IMG/VR virus record: IMGVR_UViG_3300025642_000016
Span: 1 to 32,933 of that record
Strand: one strand, 5' to 3'
Source of the DNA: a virus
Length of the DNA stretch: 32,933 bases
Made by a program: the position numbers and the translations under genes. Below the pieces are notes generated by a model. The model was not told where the DNA came from. It saw nothing but the letters and a program-made list of their open reading frames with translations, and made no database searches. Each line of letters starts with the position of its first letter. The stretch's first letter is position 1. Below, in pieces: positions 5,817 to 28,713 of this stretch.

Positions 5817-6575
5817 TTATTTGTTTAACCTTCTCCCGTCTATAAAACGCTGGTGCAACGTCTTGCATTTTTTAAGCGTCCAACCGGGAAGTTTTGAAAA
5901 CTCTTTGTAATCAAAGGGAGCGTCGGACAGTAGTTGCTCCCCTAAATGCGAGGCTTCGGGATATTTCTCCTGAAATTTCTTGTGCGTTAATTTGGTTTGT
6001 TTGTCAAAGGAAACAACCTTCGGTTCTTTGACGCAGAAAAATCCGGCGCTATGGTTCGTCGCGTTTCCGTCGCCGGTGTTCATGTCGCCGGTGTTCCTGT
6101 AGCCGGTGTTCATGTCGCCGGTGTTCATGTCGCCGGTGTTTATGTCGCCGGTGTTCATGTAGCCGGTGTTCATGTAGCCGGTGTTCCTGTAGCCGGTGTT
6201 CATGTCGCCGGTGTTCATGTCGCCGGTGTTCCTGTCGCCGGTGTTCCTGTAGCCGGTGTTCATGTCGCCGGTGTTCGCGTAGCCGTCCGGTATTATTTCT
6301 GAAAGGAGCCGAATCTCGCGGCAAACAACTTTTAGATCGGAGCCAGGAGTGTATTCTTCGATTACATCCCGCGCCTCAACTGCAAACAAGCGCGTTCCTT
6401 TATCATTATAATACGACCACGGGCCAGAAGGATGGACGCAGAAATGGAACCCACTCTCACATTGTTTAATCTCGCCTTCGTGCTTATACCATTTGCCAAG
6501 TTCAAACTTAAATCCATGACAGGTCATGTCTGCGTTAGTGGCTTTGTAACCCTTTAGATAATCATAGTGTTTCAC
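5817..6575 (-). CDS. DUF7666-like protein with NTG[D/Y] pentapeptide-type repeats
   Basis: 252 residues. GTG start chosen: AAAGGAGGTGCGC lies at ideal spacing and the start overlaps the upstream gene by 14 bases. Residues 1-95 match a phage domain I know as DUF7666 (LKGYKATNADMTCHGFKFE, KQCESGFHFCVHP, VEARDVIEE). Residues 101-170 are fourteen consecutive 5-residue units N-T-G-[D/Y]-x, encoded by 15-bp repeats. Such repeats usually fold as a right-handed beta-solenoid resembling pentapeptide-repeat or ice-nucleation proteins. The C-terminal 80 residues are basic and unrecognised. Role unknown; a DNA-mimic or protein-docking surface is conceivable. Confidence 0.75.
   Translation of the reverse strand: MKHYDYLKGYKATNADMTCHGFKFELGKWYKHEGEIKQCESGFHFCVHPSGPWSYYNDKGTRLFAVEARDVIEEYTPGSDLKVVCREIRLLSEIIPDGYANTGDMNTGYRNTGDRNTGDMNTGDMNTGYRNTGYMNTGYMNTGDINTGDMNTGDMNTGYRNTGDMNTGDGNATNHSAGFFCVKEPKVVSFDKQTKLTHKKFQEKYPEASHLGEQLLSDAPFDYKEFSKLPGWTLKKCKTLHQRFIDGRRLNK
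6066..6275 (-). repeat. Fourteen 15-bp tandem repeats (N-T-G-D/Y-x)
   Basis: The repeat unit in the forward sense is GCCGGTGTTCATGTC with variation at a few positions (D versus Y codon; M, R, I or G in the fifth residue). Because the unit is a multiple of three, several other frames also stay open through the block, creating spurious valine- and histidine-rich or arginine-rich ORFs. Near-identical units make copy-number change by recombination likely. Confidence 0.9.
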
Positions 6576-6771
6576 CGCGCACCTCCTTTATTCGTTTCTC
6601 GTTCTCCTCGATCATCGCCAGCAAACCTTCGTGAATATCTGGAAGGCAATCTATCGCCACCAGCAATCGCACGTTCCGTAGGTCGCCGTAGTCAATCGCG
6701 CCGTTGCTGCGGCGGGAAAGATAATCTTCAAGATACTTGCGAACCTGCGGGACTGTGGCGGTTGTGGTCAT
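6562..6771 (-). CDS. Hypothetical protein, 69 aa
   Basis: Not recognised. ATG at 6771 overlaps the upstream stop by ATGA, with AAGGAGG about ten bases ahead. The protein seems entirely helical (QVRKYLEDYLSRRS; DIHEGLLAMIEENEKRI) and acidic at its end. Its last codons contain the ribosome site and GTG start of the repeat-protein gene that follows. Confidence 0.65.
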   Translation of the reverse strand: MTTTATVPQVRKYLEDYLSRRSNGAIDYGDLRNVRLLVAIDCLPDIHEGLLAMIEENEKRIKEVRGETL

Positions 6772-19328: not shown

Positions 19329-21050
19329 ATGGAAGACCAAGGGGAAGCCAAAATTTATACTCTGTGGCTTGGCCACGAAAAGCTCGAATTTACTTACGAG
19401 CAAATTGCGGCTGACAAAGACTTGGAAAACGAATTGAAGATTTTGGAGAAGAAAAAGCTGGAATGCGAGATTGCTTGGTTTCACCCACACGGTTCTAAAA
19501 AACGCGCTTACGATTGTGGTTTTGATGTGGTGTCCACAGCCGATTGGATAAACGATCGGGAACATGATTTGTATTTGAACCAATCTCCCAATCAGGTAGG
19601 AAAGACATGCCATGCTGCTATCAAGGCAGCTGTTATGTCTATTCCATGCAATCCTGACTGGCGCATGTTTAAGAATGGTATTCAATATTTTGACTGGCAA
19701 GGAGCCAAAACTATTGTGGCGATGGGATACGACAAGGGTCAACTACGTGATGATTTGTGGCCGGAACTGCAAAAATGGATACCAGCCAGTGAACTTGGAG
19801 ATTACAGAAGCATTACGTTGGGTGGCACACGCGAGCCGTCTTGGGATCGTGGGGCGCGGGTTACGCTAAAATGTGGCAGTAAAATTATACTGATTACGTA
19901 TGATCAGTCACCGGCGGTCTGTTGTGGAATCAAGGCCGATATTGTTTTGGCTAACGAACAAATACCACTACCGTTCTTTATGGAACTTTCGCAACGAGGG
20001 AGAACACGCGGTGGAGTAAAATTTATTATGTCTTACACGCCGCATCTTGTTCCTGGAAGACCGGATTCTGGCATGAATAGTTTTCTTATAAATTTATGGA
20101 CAGGGCAAGATACGTATGGGCGTTCTATTTTAAGAACAAGAATTTCTATGGATGATGTTCCTAACCATATTATTTCCAAGGAAGAAAAGAAAAAGGCTTT
20201 TATAGAACATGTAGATAATCCACGTAAGACTGGCAATCAGGCGGCAATCAGAGAAGGGCAGGCACGTTATTATGGTATAGCGCAACAGGTGAGTGGGCTG
20301 TATTATGATTCTATTGAAAAAGATATTCACTTCGTGCCGTGGACTTACGAAGATATAAAGGGAAAGGGATGGACACACTACCGAACAGGGGATCATGGCT
20401 TTACTAATCCAACCGCGTTTGGAATGTGGGCGGTGAGTCCAAGCGGGGATATTTTTTTATATGATGAATACTATGTTGCTAACAAGGAAATAGACGAACA
20501 TGTTGCAAATATTATAAGACAATGCGGCAACGAGCGCAAGTTGGTGAAGAAAATTCAAGAAGGCAATGTATGGTATGATGTATATGAGGAAGTGTTTATA
20601 CGCCAGGCATACGCAAGGTCATGGTTGGATTGGCATTGCTTTCAGAATACGGGCGGAGTCGGAAGATCAATAAATTTCTTTTACCAAATAGCAGGGATCA
20701 ACGTCTGTGAGTCAACGAAGTTAGGTCAAGAACATCGTGCCCAAAACATGAGAGCATTGCTTAAAATAGACCCTAACAGAAAACACATGGTGACTGAAAA
20801 ACTTGGTGCGCCGCGAATGTATTTTTCAAGGAAGTGTGTCAAACTCGCGTGGGAACTTGAACATTGTATTGTAGATACACGGGCTTTTGGTAACGCCAAT
20901 CACAATCTTAAGGAAGTAAAAAAAAATGTTAACGACCACATGGTAGATGTTTGCGAGTATATGGCGAGTAGCGAAGCAAGGTATTTGGGTGACTACGCGA
21001 ACCGGCAACCGAAAGAGTTAAAAAACATAAGTAACCACGGAGGGTATTAA
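19329..21050 (+). CDS. terL: Terminase large subunit
   Basis: 573 residues. An N-terminal ATPase has Walker A-like S86-P-N-Q-V-G-K-T93 and Walker B ADIVLANE with the catalytic glutamate at 210, followed by motif III MSYTPH. A C-terminal RNase-H-like nuclease has the first acidic residue in YRTGD355HGFTNPTAFG, a DIFLYDEYY strand, and a last aspartate pair in NVNDHMVDVCEYM. It translocates DNA into the procapsid and cuts it. The ATG is preceded by a weak AAGG. Followed after one base by the next gene. Confidence 0.9.
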   Translation: MEDQGEAKIYTLWLGHEKLEFTYEQIAADKDLENELKILEKKKLECEIAWFHPHGSKKRAYDCGFDVVSTADWINDREHDLYLNQSPNQVGKTCHAAIKAAVMSIPCNPDWRMFKNGIQYFDWQGAKTIVAMGYDKGQLRDDLWPELQKWIPASELGDYRSITLGGTREPSWDRGARVTLKCGSKIILITYDQSPAVCCGIKADIVLANEQIPLPFFMELSQRGRTRGGVKFIMSYTPHLVPGRPDSGMNSFLINLWTGQDTYGRSILRTRISMDDVPNHIISKEEKKKAFIEHVDNPRKTGNQAAIREGQARYYGIAQQVSGLYYDSIEKDIHFVPWTYEDIKGKGWTHYRTGDHGFTNPTAFGMWAVSPSGDIFLYDEYYVANKEIDEHVANIIRQCGNERKLVKKIQEGNVWYDVYEEVFIRQAYARSWLDWHCFQNTGGVGRSINFFYQIAGINVCESTKLGQEHRAQNMRALLKIDPNRKHMVTEKLGAPRMYFSRKCVKLAWELEHCIVDTRAFGNANHNLKEVKKNVNDHMVDVCEYMASSEARYLGDYANRQPKELKNISNHGGY

Positions 21051-21051
21051 C

Positions 21052-21531
21052 ATGAAGGCTAAAAACGATGTTGCTAAGTTAGAAATGAGTGATATTTTGT
21101 GTGGTGAGTATGAAAATCCGAAAAGATTTTCTGATAAATTTTTAGATAAATATAGTTCCGAGGAGGATTGCGGGTTTAGTATTGTACATACTAAAAAACT
21201 TATGGATTATTTTAATGACTCTAATCCAGTTACGTATGTTTTAGGTAGTTCTCAATGTTCTCCTACAGGAGAAAAATATGTAAAAATACATATTGAGGGT
21301 GATAGTGCAAGAGAGGTAGAAGGGGTGTTGTTGTGTCTTTTGAAGGAATATAGAAAGAGGTCAATAAAGAATGGTAAAAAATATTTGTATTGGAGACTAT
21401 GGCCTTATATAAGTAGTATTAGTGATGACAAATGGCTTGGACGGGTAAGATTGTTGTATAGCAAAAAAGATGCACGCAAGATTGTTGGGGATTTATTTCG
21501 CAAAAAATGCAAAGCAAAGGAGTCTAAATGA
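21052..21531 (+). CDS. Hypothetical protein in the packaging operon, 159 aa
   Basis: Start after GGAGGGTATTAAC. AT-rich gene, unlike most neighbours. Alpha/beta protein with strands (VTYVLGSSQCS, YVKIHIEGD) and a helix (AREVEGVLLCLLKEYRKRS), ending in a basic tail (KIVGDLFRKKCKAKESK). No family recognised. Lower GC, as in the nearby homing nuclease genes, suggests separate acquisition. Overlaps the next gene by ATGA. Confidence 0.65.
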   Translation: MKAKNDVAKLEMSDILCGEYENPKRFSDKFLDKYSSEEDCGFSIVHTKKLMDYFNDSNPVTYVLGSSQCSPTGEKYVKIHIEGDSAREVEGVLLCLLKEYRKRSIKNGKKYLYWRLWPYISSISDDKWLGRVRLLYSKKDARKIVGDLFRKKCKAKESK

Positions 21532-21773
21532 AAATCGAACTCAGCGATCTCAAGACCATCGCCATGATTATCAACGAACCCGGCATGAAGCTCTACGAGC
21601 AGATGATTCACGATAAGATCAAGATGAAAAATGATATGACGCGGGTTACGGGAAACGCGCATGAGGACGGCGTTTTGAAGGGTGAAGTAATCGGCCACAC
21701 CCACGACATTCAAATGATTCGGGATATACGCAAGCAGTTGGCAGAATTATCAAAGGAGGATGACAATGGATGA
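21528..21773 (+). CDS. Hypothetical protein, 81 aa
   Basis: Start after AAGGAG, ATGA overlap upstream. A helical protein (KIELSDLKTIAMIINEPG; EQMIHDKIKMKNDM; MIRDIRKQLAELSKED) with histidine-containing middle (GEVIGHTHDIQ). The end encodes AGGAGG, the ribosome site of the GroES-like gene. May be a small packaging or capsid accessory protein. Not recognised. Confidence 0.6.
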   Translation: MKIELSDLKTIAMIINEPGMKLYEQMIHDKIKMKNDMTRVTGNAHEDGVLKGEVIGHTHDIQMIRDIRKQLAELSKEDDNG

Positions 21774-22299
21774 GTCAAAATTCCGACCACTCCGCGCTCT
21801 TATTCTTGTTCGGCGCGACACGCCCACCACCGAGAAGGGTGGTATCATCATACCAGAAAACGTCCAAACCTACGGATGGCGAGCGACAGTCATACGCGGC
21901 GGGCCGGATGCCAGCGAATATAAGAAAGGCGATAACATCCTGTTCCAGAAGGAATTTACGGTGCTCCCATTCAAAGATCGGACTCTGGCTCTGACGGAGG
22001 CCAAACATATACTGGCAAGACTGGTGGTGGAGAAGGACATAGAGACGATTAGACCGTGCAATCGGTTTGTCATGGTCGAACCAGACTCTGCAATACGCAA
22101 GGAAGGTGCAATAGAGTTGAGCGATAAGACCAATAAACCCGTCAAAACAGGTGCGATATTCCGGCGGGGGAATGATTGCACCGATATGAAATGCGGGTCA
22201 AAAGTGTGGTTTGAGGCTGGTTTTGGCGTGGATTGTATGGAAAACGATGTTCATTATAAATTGATTGACGAAGACAATATAATGGCAGTTGAAAAATAA
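21766..22299 (+). CDS. Double GroES-domain co-chaperonin-like protein
   Basis: 177 residues from ATG 21766 (AGGAGG at six bases; the ATG at 21760 abuts that site). Two GroES/Cpn10-like barrels lie in tandem. Domain 1, about 5-86, has FRPLRALILVRRD, the GroES-typical TEKGGIIIPE, then GWRATVIRGGP, Y-K-K-G-D-N-I-L-F and HILARL. Domain 2, about 94-177, has IRPCNRFVMVEP, RKEGAIEL, KTGAIFRRGND, C-G-S-K-V-W-F and the ending YKLIDEDNIMAVEK. GroES caps GroEL; phage co-chaperonins such as T4 gp31 assist capsid folding. A fused pair would be a GroES dimer in one chain. The role in capsid folding is inferred. Confidence 0.75.
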   Translation: MDESKFRPLRALILVRRDTPTTEKGGIIIPENVQTYGWRATVIRGGPDASEYKKGDNILFQKEFTVLPFKDRTLALTEAKHILARLVVEKDIETIRPCNRFVMVEPDSAIRKEGAIELSDKTNKPVKTGAIFRRGNDCTDMKCGSKVWFEAGFGVDCMENDVHYKLIDEDNIMAVEK

Positions 22300-22321: not shown

Positions 22322-22495
22322 ATGCTTCAATCTGCGCCAGTTAAGAGCAAATCTTGTTCCGACGAGGAAATATCGCAAAAACTCAAGGAATTACGCGAAA
22401 AGAAGTCTTGGTTTCAAGTAACTATACGTGGCGCAAAGGGTATTATCAAGGAGCTTGTAGTATCTGAGACAAAAGTATTTGACGATCACCAGTAA
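22322..22495 (+). CDS. Hypothetical protein, 57 aa
   Basis: Frame read from the gap; ATG 22322 has AAAGGG at eight bases. The product begins MLQSAPVKSKSCSDEEISQ, continues with a helix KLKELREKK and ends with strands FQVTIRGAKGIIKELVVSE. Alpha/beta, possibly nucleic-acid binding. It closes the first part of the late operon, ahead of the terminator. Confidence 0.6.
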   Translation: MLQSAPVKSKSCSDEEISQKLKELREKKSWFQVTIRGAKGIIKELVVSETKVFDDHQ

Positions 22496-22522
22496 CTAAC
22501 TTTCTATCAAGAAGTAGTACGG

Positions 22523-22557
22523 GGTCATTAGCCTTAACCGGCTGGTGACCTTTTTTT
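22523..22557 (+). terminator. Intrinsic terminator before the portal gene
   Basis: GGTCATTAGCC (22523-22533), loop TTAACC, GGCTGGTGACC (22540-22550): 11 pairs including two G-U, followed at once by seven T (22551-22557). This is the best intrinsic terminator in the window. It sits inside the late gene string, 12 bases before the portal ATG. Confidence 0.85.
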
Positions 22558-22569
22558 GTTGAGTAAAAC

Positions 22570-26122: not shown

Positions 26123-26662
26123 GTGAAAACAAAGATATATGTTCTATGCGAACCAAGCGGGAAAATACGGTATGTAGGTAAGACAAGCAAGTCTCTTTCC
26201 GCAAGATTTTCAGGACATATTAGAACTGCACGATTTGGGGAAAAGACACATAAGAGCAATTGGATAAGGTCTCTTTTGTCAAAAGGTTTTTTGCCTAATA
26301 TTCAATTCGTAGGAGAAGTGGATGGTAATGGTGCCACAGAGGAAATTGCTTGGATAAAATACTTCCGCGATGAAGGTGTTGTTCTTGTTAACGGAACTGA
26401 TGGTGGCGAGGGTTTTAAAGCGAAACGAGGTGCTTGTTCTTTAGAACATAGAAAAAAAATTGGCGATGCTCTTCGCGGAAAACATCATTCTTTAGAGGCT
26501 CGAAAACACATGGGTGAGGCTCAAAGAGGACGCGTTTTTTCTGCTGAACATTGCAGAAAAATTAGTAATGTCAAAAAAGGAACTATTTGTTCTTGGGAAA
26601 CTCGCCAAAAAATAAGTAAAATAATTAAAGAATGGTGGGAAAAAAGAAAACAAGGAGGGTAG
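26123..26662 (+). CDS. GIY-YIG homing endonuclease
   Basis: 179 residues with GTG start three bases after the previous stop. The nuclease signature is a variant of GIY-YIG: KIYVLCEPSGKIRYVGKT, then a conserved arginine R28 in SARFSGH, a helix with N46 in HKSNWIRSL, and the metal-binding glutamate in NGATEEIAWI. The C-terminus contains NUMOD3-like repeats (SLEHRKKIGDALRGKHHS, SLEARKHMGEAQRG, SAEHCRKISNVKKG) that bind DNA in homing nucleases. Lower GC than the genes on either side. A mobile selfish gene inside the capsid operon. Confidence 0.9.
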   Translation: MKTKIYVLCEPSGKIRYVGKTSKSLSARFSGHIRTARFGEKTHKSNWIRSLLSKGFLPNIQFVGEVDGNGATEEIAWIKYFRDEGVVLVNGTDGGEGFKAKRGACSLEHRKKIGDALRGKHHSLEARKHMGEAQRGRVFSAEHCRKISNVKKGTICSWETRQKISKIIKEWWEKRKQGG

Positions 26663-26665
26663 GTT

Positions 26666-27157
26666 ATGGCAACACGCGTAATGAAAACTATGGCGATTTA
26701 TCGCCAAGAGGGGAAAAACGGCACAACCATTGAGGATGCCGTCGGTGAAGATGTTGGCGAGACATGGAAAATGGGTGCGCCCCTTTCCCGCGAAACAGGA
26801 TCAACGGGGTCTATTGTAGAATGGCCCGGAACTACGAATGCCACGCTTCCGATAGGGGTTGCGGCAAAAGATGCGACAGGAGTTACTGGTGCCTCCGTTC
26901 CTCATTATGAAGCCAATGATTATACTCTGTTTGAAGCCTCTTTGATTAACGATACTACAGCCCATGTACTTGTGGTAGGCAATTTGGGTGTAGCATATTC
27001 ACTGATTAAATCAGGAACTAATTGGTATGTTGATATTGCCGATGTAGTCACAAAACTCGTCGAAGTTGTTGGGTTTATTGATCCCGTTGGTGATACAAAT
27101 CCCAGAGTCATTGTGCGATTCATCGGGGATCATCAGGCGAATGTATTGCAGGCGTAA
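26666..27157 (+). CDS. Decoration/capsid-cement-type protein, copy A
   Basis: 163 residues; start after AAGGAGGGTAGGTT. Paralogue of the gene at 27270-27764: shared segments include AIYRQEGK, KDATGVTGASVP, YEANDYTLF, HVLVVGNLGVAY and IDPVGDTNPRVIVRF. Beta-rich with no cysteine. The location just before the major capsid gene and the compact beta fold fit a head decoration or cementing protein (DUF2190-like in outline). The name is inferred. Confidence 0.6.
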   Translation: MATRVMKTMAIYRQEGKNGTTIEDAVGEDVGETWKMGAPLSRETGSTGSIVEWPGTTNATLPIGVAAKDATGVTGASVPHYEANDYTLFEASLINDTTAHVLVVGNLGVAYSLIKSGTNWYVDIADVVTKLVEVVGFIDPVGDTNPRVIVRFIGDHQANVLQA

Positions 27158-27269: not shown

Positions 27270-27764
27270 ATGGCGACAACTCGTGTAAAACGAACATTCG
27301 CTATTTACCGTCAGGAAGGTAAAGATGGGGCGATAGTCGATAAGACTGGTGCCGTTGGCGAAGCGGCGAGCCAAGACTACAAGATTGGTGCTCCGTTGGA
27401 ATATACTGCCGGAACTATCGAAGCTCTTGCAACTGGCGGCGCTGATACCGGGCAGGTTATTGGTATTGCTCTCAAGGATGCTACTGGAACCACAGGAGCC
27501 GCTGTTCCGTACTATGAGGCTAATGATTACAACCTGTTCGCTGGAACATTGATTGCAACCACGAGCGATCATGTATTGGCAGTAGCTAACCTTGGTGCAG
27601 TGTATGGGATACTTGATTCCGGCGATGACTGGTATGTTGACGTTGACAATACAAGCCAGAAGAAAGTGGTGATTGTTGGTTGTATTGATCCCATCGGCGA
27701 TACCAATGCCCGCGTGATATTCCGCTTCTTGGGCGGTATGCAGACCAGGGTGCTCCAGTCCTAA
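27270..27764 (+). CDS. Decoration/capsid-cement-type protein, copy B
   Basis: 164 residues; start after AAGGAGAAATGTT. Same architecture as copy A: AIYRQEGKDG, GAPLEYTAG, KDATGTTGAAVP, YEANDYNLF, WYVDVDNT, IDPIGDTNARVIFRF, ending VLQS. The 112-base gap before it holds no gene but a weak imperfect hairpin (TCATTC ... GAATGA at about 27200-27231). The copies diverge most in the middle (residues 25-65), as expected if one kept the contact surface and the other changed. Sits 37 bases before the major capsid gene. Confidence 0.6.
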   Translation: MATTRVKRTFAIYRQEGKDGAIVDKTGAVGEAASQDYKIGAPLEYTAGTIEALATGGADTGQVIGIALKDATGTTGAAVPYYEANDYNLFAGTLIATTSDHVLAVANLGAVYGILDSGDDWYVDVDNTSQKKVVIVGCIDPIGDTNARVIFRFLGGMQTRVLQS

Positions 27765-27801: not shown

Positions 27802-28713
27802 ATGGCTATTATATCTGCTAATATGGCGAATCTTTTTGATGCACGCATCAATAAAGCGTTCTATCAATACCTGGGTATGTACCCGGAGGAATACACCAAG
27901 TGGTGCGAAACGATGGGTTCCAAGAAACAGTATGAGCAGGTTTCGCTCTATAGCGAACTTCCCATGCCTGCGGTATTGGGCGAATATGAAAACGCTCCCG
28001 AAACCACCTTCAAACAGGGGCCGGTGCGGACGTGGACTCATGTGAAGTACGGGTTCAAACTGATCGCTTCAGAGGAAGCTCTTGAAGACGAACTGTTCCC
28101 GGTGATCGTGGCAACGGCTGGTAGTATGGGCGAGGCGATGAAACATCGTATTGAAACCCAGGGTGCGTATGACATGAATAGCGCATTCACGGTCAATACG
28201 GTTGGTGCGGCTAATACGGCTGACGAAACTCTGTGTGCTACTTCTCACGCCACCTTCACGGGTGCTGGTGGAGCAGCGCAGGCGAATCGTCCGACGGACG
28301 TTACGTTAGGTGCAGATTCGCTTTGGGCTGGTGTTGACAACTTTGCTGGTCTGAATGATCACGAAGGCAACCCGGTCATGGCGATCCCGCGCAAATTGAT
28401 CATTCCTGCGGCTCTGGAACGGGCAACGATTGAGATTTTACAATCAACCGATGTTCCCTACAAGTCCACGAATGAGAAGAACGCGATTCAGTCCAAGGGT
28501 CTGACTTATGAAATCGGTCACTACCTGACGGCGAGTGCTGCTTGGTTCTTGGTGACAGATAAGAAGCCCATTCGGTTCTATATGCGGCGTTCTCCGTCTG
28601 TGAAACCGGATAATGATAGCACGAATGATTCCCGTAGTTGGGTGATTACGTGCCGATTGAGTCATGCTCCGTATGACTGGTATCAGATTTACGGCACGGA
28701 CGGCGTGGCGTAA
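27802..28713 (+). CDS. Major capsid protein
   Basis: 303 residues; start after AAAAGGAAATAAGTT. No scaffold-type coiled coil; mixed alpha/beta with LFDARINKAFYQYLGMYP, a strand-helix-rich core (EYENAPETTFKQGPVRTWTH, then LIASEEALEDELFP), central AMKHRIETQGAYDMN and a C-terminal KPIRFYMRR strand. This arrangement (N-arm, E-loop-like charged segment, spine helix, A-domain) fits an HK97-fold coat protein. It is the largest gene in the correct place and lies directly after the decoration pair and before the hairpin. No family is named with certainty. Confidence 0.75.
   Translation: MAIISANMANLFDARINKAFYQYLGMYPEEYTKWCETMGSKKQYEQVSLYSELPMPAVLGEYENAPETTFKQGPVRTWTHVKYGFKLIASEEALEDELFPVIVATAGSMGEAMKHRIETQGAYDMNSAFTVNTVGAANTADETLCATSHATFTGAGGAAQANRPTDVTLGADSLWAGVDNFAGLNDHEGNPVMAIPRKLIIPAALERATIEILQSTDVPYKSTNEKNAIQSKGLTYEIGHYLTASAAWFLVTDKKPIRFYMRRSPSVKPDNDSTNDSRSWVITCRLSHAPYDWYQIYGTDGVA

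What the first reader, a model, noticed from the sequence alone, without database searches (positions are those of the whole stretch)
21766..22299. Two GroES-like domains fused in one protein inside the packaging operon
The two halves each start with a strand-rich I-R-P or F-R-P segment, carry a GroES-like G-G-I-x-I-P or G-A-I-E-L strand after a flexible loop, and end with an A-R-L or A-V-E-K strand. GroES works as a ring of seven single domains; a covalent pair would give a different ring geometry or a mixed cap with host GroEL. It lies between terL and portal, so capsid folding is a likely purpose. Phage-encoded single-domain co-chaperonins are known (T4 gp31); I do not recall a fused pair in this position, but cannot search.
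Basis: partly seen in the sequence, partly recalled or inferred. Interest (0 to 1): 0.6.

Follow-up and report, generated by a model that had tools for sequence, protein, structure and literature searches.

The report
Phage double-GroES co-chaperonin, Cpn20-like
This uncultivated phage carries a gene for two fused copies of the GroES folding-chamber lid, an arrangement otherwise described only in chloroplasts and apicoplasts, placed between its DNA-packaging motor and portal genes, where it probably helps host GroEL fold the phage's own head proteins.

Summary
Confirmed. Window 21766-22299 (+) encodes a 177-residue protein made of two head-to-tail GroES/Cpn10 domains. Each half alone passes the Pfam Cpn10 cut-off, the halves align to each other far above shuffles, and a ten-sequence AlphaFold2 model (pLDDT 78, pTM 0.72) gives two barrels whose only low-confidence stretches are the two expected mobile loops. 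The best full-length match in the PDB, by profile (E=2e-16) and by fold (TM 0.70), is Chlamydomonas chloroplast Cpn20, the known tandem GroES. Ten further IMG/VR contigs (25-59% identity) carry the same fused gene in the same place, after terL and before the portal. Both halves are under purifying selection, and the halves sort into two clades, so the fusion predates this virus group. Both domains lack the roof hairpin, as T4 gp31 does. Best explanation: a phage co-chaperonin that caps host GroEL to fold head or packaging proteins, either as trimers/tetramers or mixed with host GroES to make seven domains. Biochemistry is inferred, not shown. Tandem GroES (Cpn20) and phage GroES are each known; Cellulophaga phage phi18:3 gp096 may be a remote second case. 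I found no published description of a phage double GroES in the library searched.

The parts
21766..22299 (+). Tandem GroES (double Cpn10-domain) co-chaperonin, 177 aa
21778..22032 (+). GroES-like domain 1 (residues 5-89), no roof hairpin
   Evidence: Pfam Cpn10 30.0 bits; AF2 strands 12-17, 37-45, 57-61, 74-78, 82-89
21832..21864 (+). Mobile loop 1 (residues 23-33, EKGGIIIPENV), canonical GroEL-binding type; [IV]-x-[IVL]-P in all 11 sequences
   Evidence: low pLDDT only here in domain 1; alignments
22036..22296 (+). GroES-like domain 2 (residues 91-177), no roof hairpin, less conserved
   Evidence: Pfam Cpn10 23.7 bits; AF2 strands 92-97, 101-106, 126-134, 146-150, 155-159, 162-168, 172-176
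22093..22131 (+). Mobile loop 2 (residues 110-122, around GAIELSDK); hydrophobic-x-L kept in 10 of 11 sequences, GGIILP in L028
   Evidence: low pLDDT; alignments
21753..21759 (+). Shine-Dalgarno AAGGAGG, 6 nt before ATG 21766
   Evidence: sequence
19329..21050 (+). Terminase large subunit
   Evidence: PHROG 5653 E=7e-5; tblastn to annotated terminases, best E=2e-11; Walker A-like PNQVGKT
21052..21531 (+). 159-aa ORF of unknown function, present in some relatives, duplicated in L011
21528..21773 (+). 81-aa ORF directly upstream, overlaps the tandem GroES start; conserved in all relatives
22322..22495 (+). 57-aa ORF of unknown function, also in L028, L030, L040
22521..22559 (+). Terminator-like hairpin plus T-run between the GroES gene and the portal
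   Evidence: similar hairpins with different stem letters in L011, L028, L030, L040
22570..24735 (+). Portal-like protein
   Evidence: weak: PHROG 1216 portal E=0.66, PDB portal 9k09 E=0.036; position
27802..28713 (+). Major capsid protein candidate, a possible folding client
   Evidence: PHROG 371 major head protein E=4.9e-6

Best explanation
The gene makes a double-domain phage co-chaperonin. SHOWN: two head-to-tail GroES domains, both conserved and under purifying selection, both with a predicted flexible loop at the GroES mobile-loop position and no roof hairpin, fused once before this virus group diversified, and always encoded next to the terminase and portal genes. INFERRED: the protein assembles side by side into a ring-like cap, its loops dock on the GroEL apical domains of the host (no GroEL gene was noticed in the window), and it closes the folding chamber over phage head or packaging proteins. 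Because two domains per chain cannot fill seven sites evenly, the cap is most likely either three tandem chains plus one host GroES (7 domains) or a trimer/tetramer that leaves one site or one domain unused, as described for Cpn20. The missing roof loops would leave the dome open, as in T4 gp31.
For: Each half passes Pfam Cpn10; all ten family members scanned match Cpn10. Profile search of the PDB: Chlamydomonas Cpn20 (7ekq_R) E=2e-16 over profile positions 7-176, i.e. both domains. AF2 pLDDT 77.7, pTM 0.72, low confidence only within residues 23-33 and 110-122, the two mobile loops; Foldseek top two hits are Cpn20 (TM 0.70) and Cpn23 (TM 0.64), tandem GroES chains; the other hits down to rank 31 are single GroES domains, gp31 at rank 31. 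Loop 1 [IV]-x-[IVL]-P in 11 of 11, loop 2 hydrophobic-x-L in 10 of 11. Same place between terL and portal in all 11 contig groups. dN/dS 0.04-0.26 in both domains where dS is finite. Roof segment missing by 9 residues in both halves against E. coli GroES. Cpn20 alone works with GroEL and can replace GroES in E. coli (PMC3542282); even-numbered domain sets still work with GroEL (PMC5780408); 7ekq holds 1 Cpn11 + 1 Cpn23 + 2 Cpn20 chains, i.e. seven domains (chain counts).
Against: No experiment; GroEL binding, oligomer state and clients are untested. Host unknown, so its GroEL is unknown. Domain 2 is much more divergent (e.g. 74% against 43% identity to L003) and its loop motif is lost in L032, so it may not bind GroEL in every member. 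The candidate capsid protein is only about 33 kDa, so the 'bigger chamber' reason given for gp31 need not apply.
Confidence: 0.78

Rival explanations
1. Division of labour: domain 1 is the GroEL-binding unit and domain 2 has become an adaptor that recruits a phage client or fixes ring geometry, without binding GroEL itself.
For: Domain 2 evolves faster (74/43, 66/33, 54/29% identity for domains 1/2) and L032 lost the loop leucine. Window loop 2 (EGAIELSDK) is less canonical than loop 1.
Against: Loop 2 keeps hydrophobic-x-L in 10 of 11 members, with canonical GGIILP in L028; domain 2 alone still passes the Cpn10 cut-off.
Confidence: 0.13
2. A cap for another seven-fold machine, e.g. host ClpP: co-chaperonin subunits Cpn11/20/23 are found bound to the Chlamydomonas ClpP complex (7ekq), so the phage protein might block or redirect a host protease.
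For: The closest solved relatives by sequence and fold (7ekq_R, 7ekq_Q) come from that ClpP entry.
Against: Those proteins are also GroEL-type co-chaperonins (PMC5780408). A morphogenesis location fits folding of head proteins better than early host takeover.
Confidence: 0.04
3. A virion structural or assembly protein that reuses the GroES fold and does not act with a chaperonin.
For: Constant location beside terL and portal; unusually strong conservation of the KExTVLPFxDRT segment of domain 1.
Against: Both flexible loops and their hydrophobic tripeptides are kept, which a structural protein would not need.
Confidence: 0.05

Closest known systems
Chloroplast/apicoplast Cpn20 (Cpn21), double-domain co-chaperonin; solved chain 7ekq_R
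   Same: Two Cpn10 domains head to tail; whole-length profile match E=2e-16 and top Foldseek hit TM 0.70
   Different: Phage-encoded, in a head/packaging gene cluster; about 18% identity; roof hairpin missing in both domains, while apicomplexan Cpn20 keeps it in both (PMC3542282). The tree does not resolve its kinship to Cpn20.
T4 gp31 (and phage co-chaperonins of its kind)
   Same: Phage-encoded GroES fold; no roof loops (PMC6318259); gp31 serves a head protein
   Different: gp31 is a single domain forming a heptamer; similarity only by fold (1g31 rank 31, E=0.034)
Single-domain phage GroES in head operons (ct2os315 MW202796; Shewanella phage 1/44; Pseudoalteromonas phage B8b)
   Same: Cpn10 gene near portal/capsid genes (PMC4294664)
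   Different: One domain only; not between terL and portal in the first two
Cellulophaga phage phi18:3 gp096 (and phi13:2, phi19:3, phi46:3)
   Same: 200 aa, annotated co-chaperonin GroES, two genes upstream of terL and portal; BFVD model aligns over 203 columns, TM 0.52; the phage also has a single-domain GroES, gp080
   Different: Only its C-terminal half passes Pfam Cpn10; N-terminal half not recognised by sequence; no significant profile similarity to this family

Membership tests
Cpn10/GroES (PF00166) | Match to family profile above curated cut-off | tested here: met
   30.0 and 23.7 bits for the halves, cut-off 21.1
Cpn10/GroES (PF00166) | GroES beta-barrel fold | tested here: met
   AF2 pTM 0.72; Foldseek hits to GroES/Cpn10 chains; predicted, not solved
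Cpn10/GroES (PF00166) | Mobile loop with hydrophobic tripeptide for GroEL binding | tested here: met
   Loop 1 GGIIIP, motif 11 of 11; loop 2 hydrophobic-x-L, 10 of 11; both predicted flexible
Cpn10/GroES (PF00166) | Roof hairpin closing the dome | tested here: not met
   9-residue gap in both halves against E. coli GroES; also missing in gp31, so not required for function
Cpn10/GroES (PF00166) | Heptameric ring that binds GroEL with ATP | not testable with these tools
   needs biochemistry
Cpn20 (double-domain co-chaperonin) | Two Cpn10 domains fused head to tail in one chain | tested here: met
Cpn20 (double-domain co-chaperonin) | Common descent with plastid Cpn20 | tested here: inconclusive
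   tree of halves does not place Cpn20 halves with the phage halves with support; independent fusion is the simpler reading
Cpn20 (double-domain co-chaperonin) | Plastid or apicoplast protein | tested here: not met
   the window is an IMG/VR virus record with phage head genes
T4 gp31 type | Viral GroES-fold co-chaperonin without roof loops | tested here: met
T4 gp31 type | Single-domain subunit | tested here: not met
   two domains
Alcohol dehydrogenase GroES-like domain (PF08240) | Profile match above cut-off | tested here: not met
   for the window protein only Cpn10 is listed even at E<=10; best among relatives E=0.0076 against 1.3e-17 for Cpn10

The most novel reading that the evidence does not exclude
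A group of tailed phages evolved, independently of plastids, its own Cpn20: a roofless double co-chaperonin that forms a mixed cap with a defined order of unlike domains, possibly three phage chains plus one host GroES, on host GroEL, tuned to phage head or packaging proteins.
Probability: 0.4. Interest if true: 0.7.

Novelty: new variant of a known kind. Interest (0 to 1): 0.52.

Why it matters
Double-domain co-chaperonins were stated to occur only in plastids of plants and algae, plus the apicoplast (PMC3542282). A phage family with the same architecture gives a compact, likely independent case for asking how an even number of GroES domains caps a seven-fold GroEL ring, and whether phages build mixed lids with host GroES to favour their own proteins.

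Tried and rejected
Chance resemblance: rejected by cut-offs, shuffles and ten relatives. Alcohol-dehydrogenase type GroES fold: much weaker than Cpn10. Recent frameshift or assembly fusion of two genes: rejected, the fusion is fixed in all 11 contig groups and the window protein is letter-identical in L001 and L002. Host search: two genome-contig scans found no relative; relatives cannot be drawn for a virus record. A second, single-domain GroES elsewhere in the window: none found in ORFs of 30 aa or more, but the record may be a fragment. First AF2 model (7 sequences) was weak (pLDDT 61) and superseded. Plasmid and phage collections hold no full-length match. BFVD hits A0A516LTQ1 (183 aa), A0A516LJK4 (186 aa) and A0A516L046 (304 aa) align along most of the query (made with the weaker first model) but have no name here and could not be read; they may be further viral double-GroES proteins.

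Full report
OBSERVATION. The ORF at 21766-22299 (+) is real: Shine-Dalgarno AAGGAGG six bases before ATG 21766, overlapping the end of an 81-aa ORF. Its 177 residues contain two GroES domains. Each half separately passes the Pfam Cpn10 cut-off (30.0 and 23.7 bits, cut-off 21.1) and matches PHROG 3188, co-chaperonin GroES. The halves align to each other at score 64, shuffles 22.9 +/- 4.0, none of 500 as high.

RELATIVES. The window is an IMG/VR virus record of 32,933 bases. Two contigs encode the identical protein, and L001 is identical to the window over its whole 16.5 kb. Ten other contig groups encode the fused protein at 25-59% identity: L003, L011, L012 (=L013), L014, L015, L016, L028, L030, L032, L040 (L028 and L030 are near-copies). 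In every one the order is terL, 81-aa-type ORF, double GroES, portal. None of the 50,697 phage records holds a full-length match.

FOLD. With ten sequences AlphaFold2 gives pLDDT 77.7 and pTM 0.72; the only stretches of three or more residues below 50 lie within 23-33 and 110-122, the two mobile loops. Foldseek against the PDB ranks chloroplast Cpn20 (7ekq_R, TM 0.70 by query length) and Cpn23 (7ekq_Q, 0.64) first, then single GroES chains, with T4 gp31 at rank 31. A profile of the family finds 7ekq_R at E=2e-16 across both domains.

ANATOMY. Loop 1 reads GGIIIP and keeps [IV]-x-[IVL]-P in all 11 sequences; loop 2 keeps hydrophobic-x-L in 10 of 11, with GGIILP in L028. Both halves lack nine residues at the roof hairpin compared with E. 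coli GroES. T4 gp31 also lacks roof loops, which is thought to leave a wider opening (PMC6318259). Domain 1 is the more conserved half in most pairs. dN/dS is 0.04-0.26 in both halves where dS is finite; several dS values are near saturation, so these are rough.

ORIGIN. In a tree of halves all N-terminal halves form one group and all C-terminal halves another (100/99): one fusion before these viruses diverged. Whether by duplication or by joining two different GroES genes, and any link to plastid Cpn20, is unresolved.

MECHANISM. Inferred: a lid for host GroEL. Cpn20 sets the precedent. It forms tetramers or mixed rings, works with GroEL, and Pf-cpn20 replaces GroES in E. coli (PMC3542282). 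Six- or eight-domain caps work by leaving a site or a domain unused, while the native plant and algal form is probably a seven-domain hetero-oligomer (PMC5780408). The 7ekq chain counts (one Cpn11, one Cpn23, two Cpn20) add up to seven domains. By analogy three phage chains plus one host GroES is attractive but unproven. Location next to terL, portal and a capsid candidate (PHROG 371) points to head or packaging proteins as clients.

KNOWN OR NEW. Phage GroES genes are well known, also in head operons (PMC4294664). Tandem GroES is known as Cpn20. A double GroES in phages was not found in the papers searched, with the limit that only open-licence papers are held. Cellulophaga phage phi18:3 gp096, annotated GroES, 200 aa, lies two genes before terL and portal and its BFVD model aligns across both domains, but only its C-terminal half is recognised by sequence. 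It is a possible, remote precedent, and that phage also has a single-domain GroES. Three unnamed BFVD proteins may be others.

VERDICT.

Noticed in passing
window 22521-22559; L011 4788-4835, L028 4995-5042, L040 1922-1969: A strong terminator-like hairpin (about -20 to -27 kcal/mol) sits just before the portal start in the window and in L011, L028, L030 and L040, with different stem letters that still pair; it may set the ratio between the terL-GroES transcript and the portal-capsid transcript.
   Followed up: partly
window 26666-27154 and 27270-27761: Two adjacent paralogous genes (51% identical) before the capsid gene; relatives carry one copy (L012, L028, L030, L032, L040) or two (L003, L011, L014-L016).
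   Followed up: partly
window 26123-26659: Homing-endonuclease-like ORF (PHROG 314, E=1.1e-5) inserted in the head gene cluster; no relative has it at that place, though L042 has a similar ORF elsewhere (6158-6712).
   Followed up: no
L011 2601-3212 and 3188-3640: The 159-aa ORF found between terL and the double GroES is duplicated in this relative and missing in others.
   Followed up: no
Cellulophaga phage phi18:3, L046 31108-31362 and 41458-42060: One phage with both a single-domain GroES (gp080) and a 200-aa GroES-annotated protein (gp096) near terL: possibly a phage Cpn10 plus Cpn20-like pair.
   Followed up: partly
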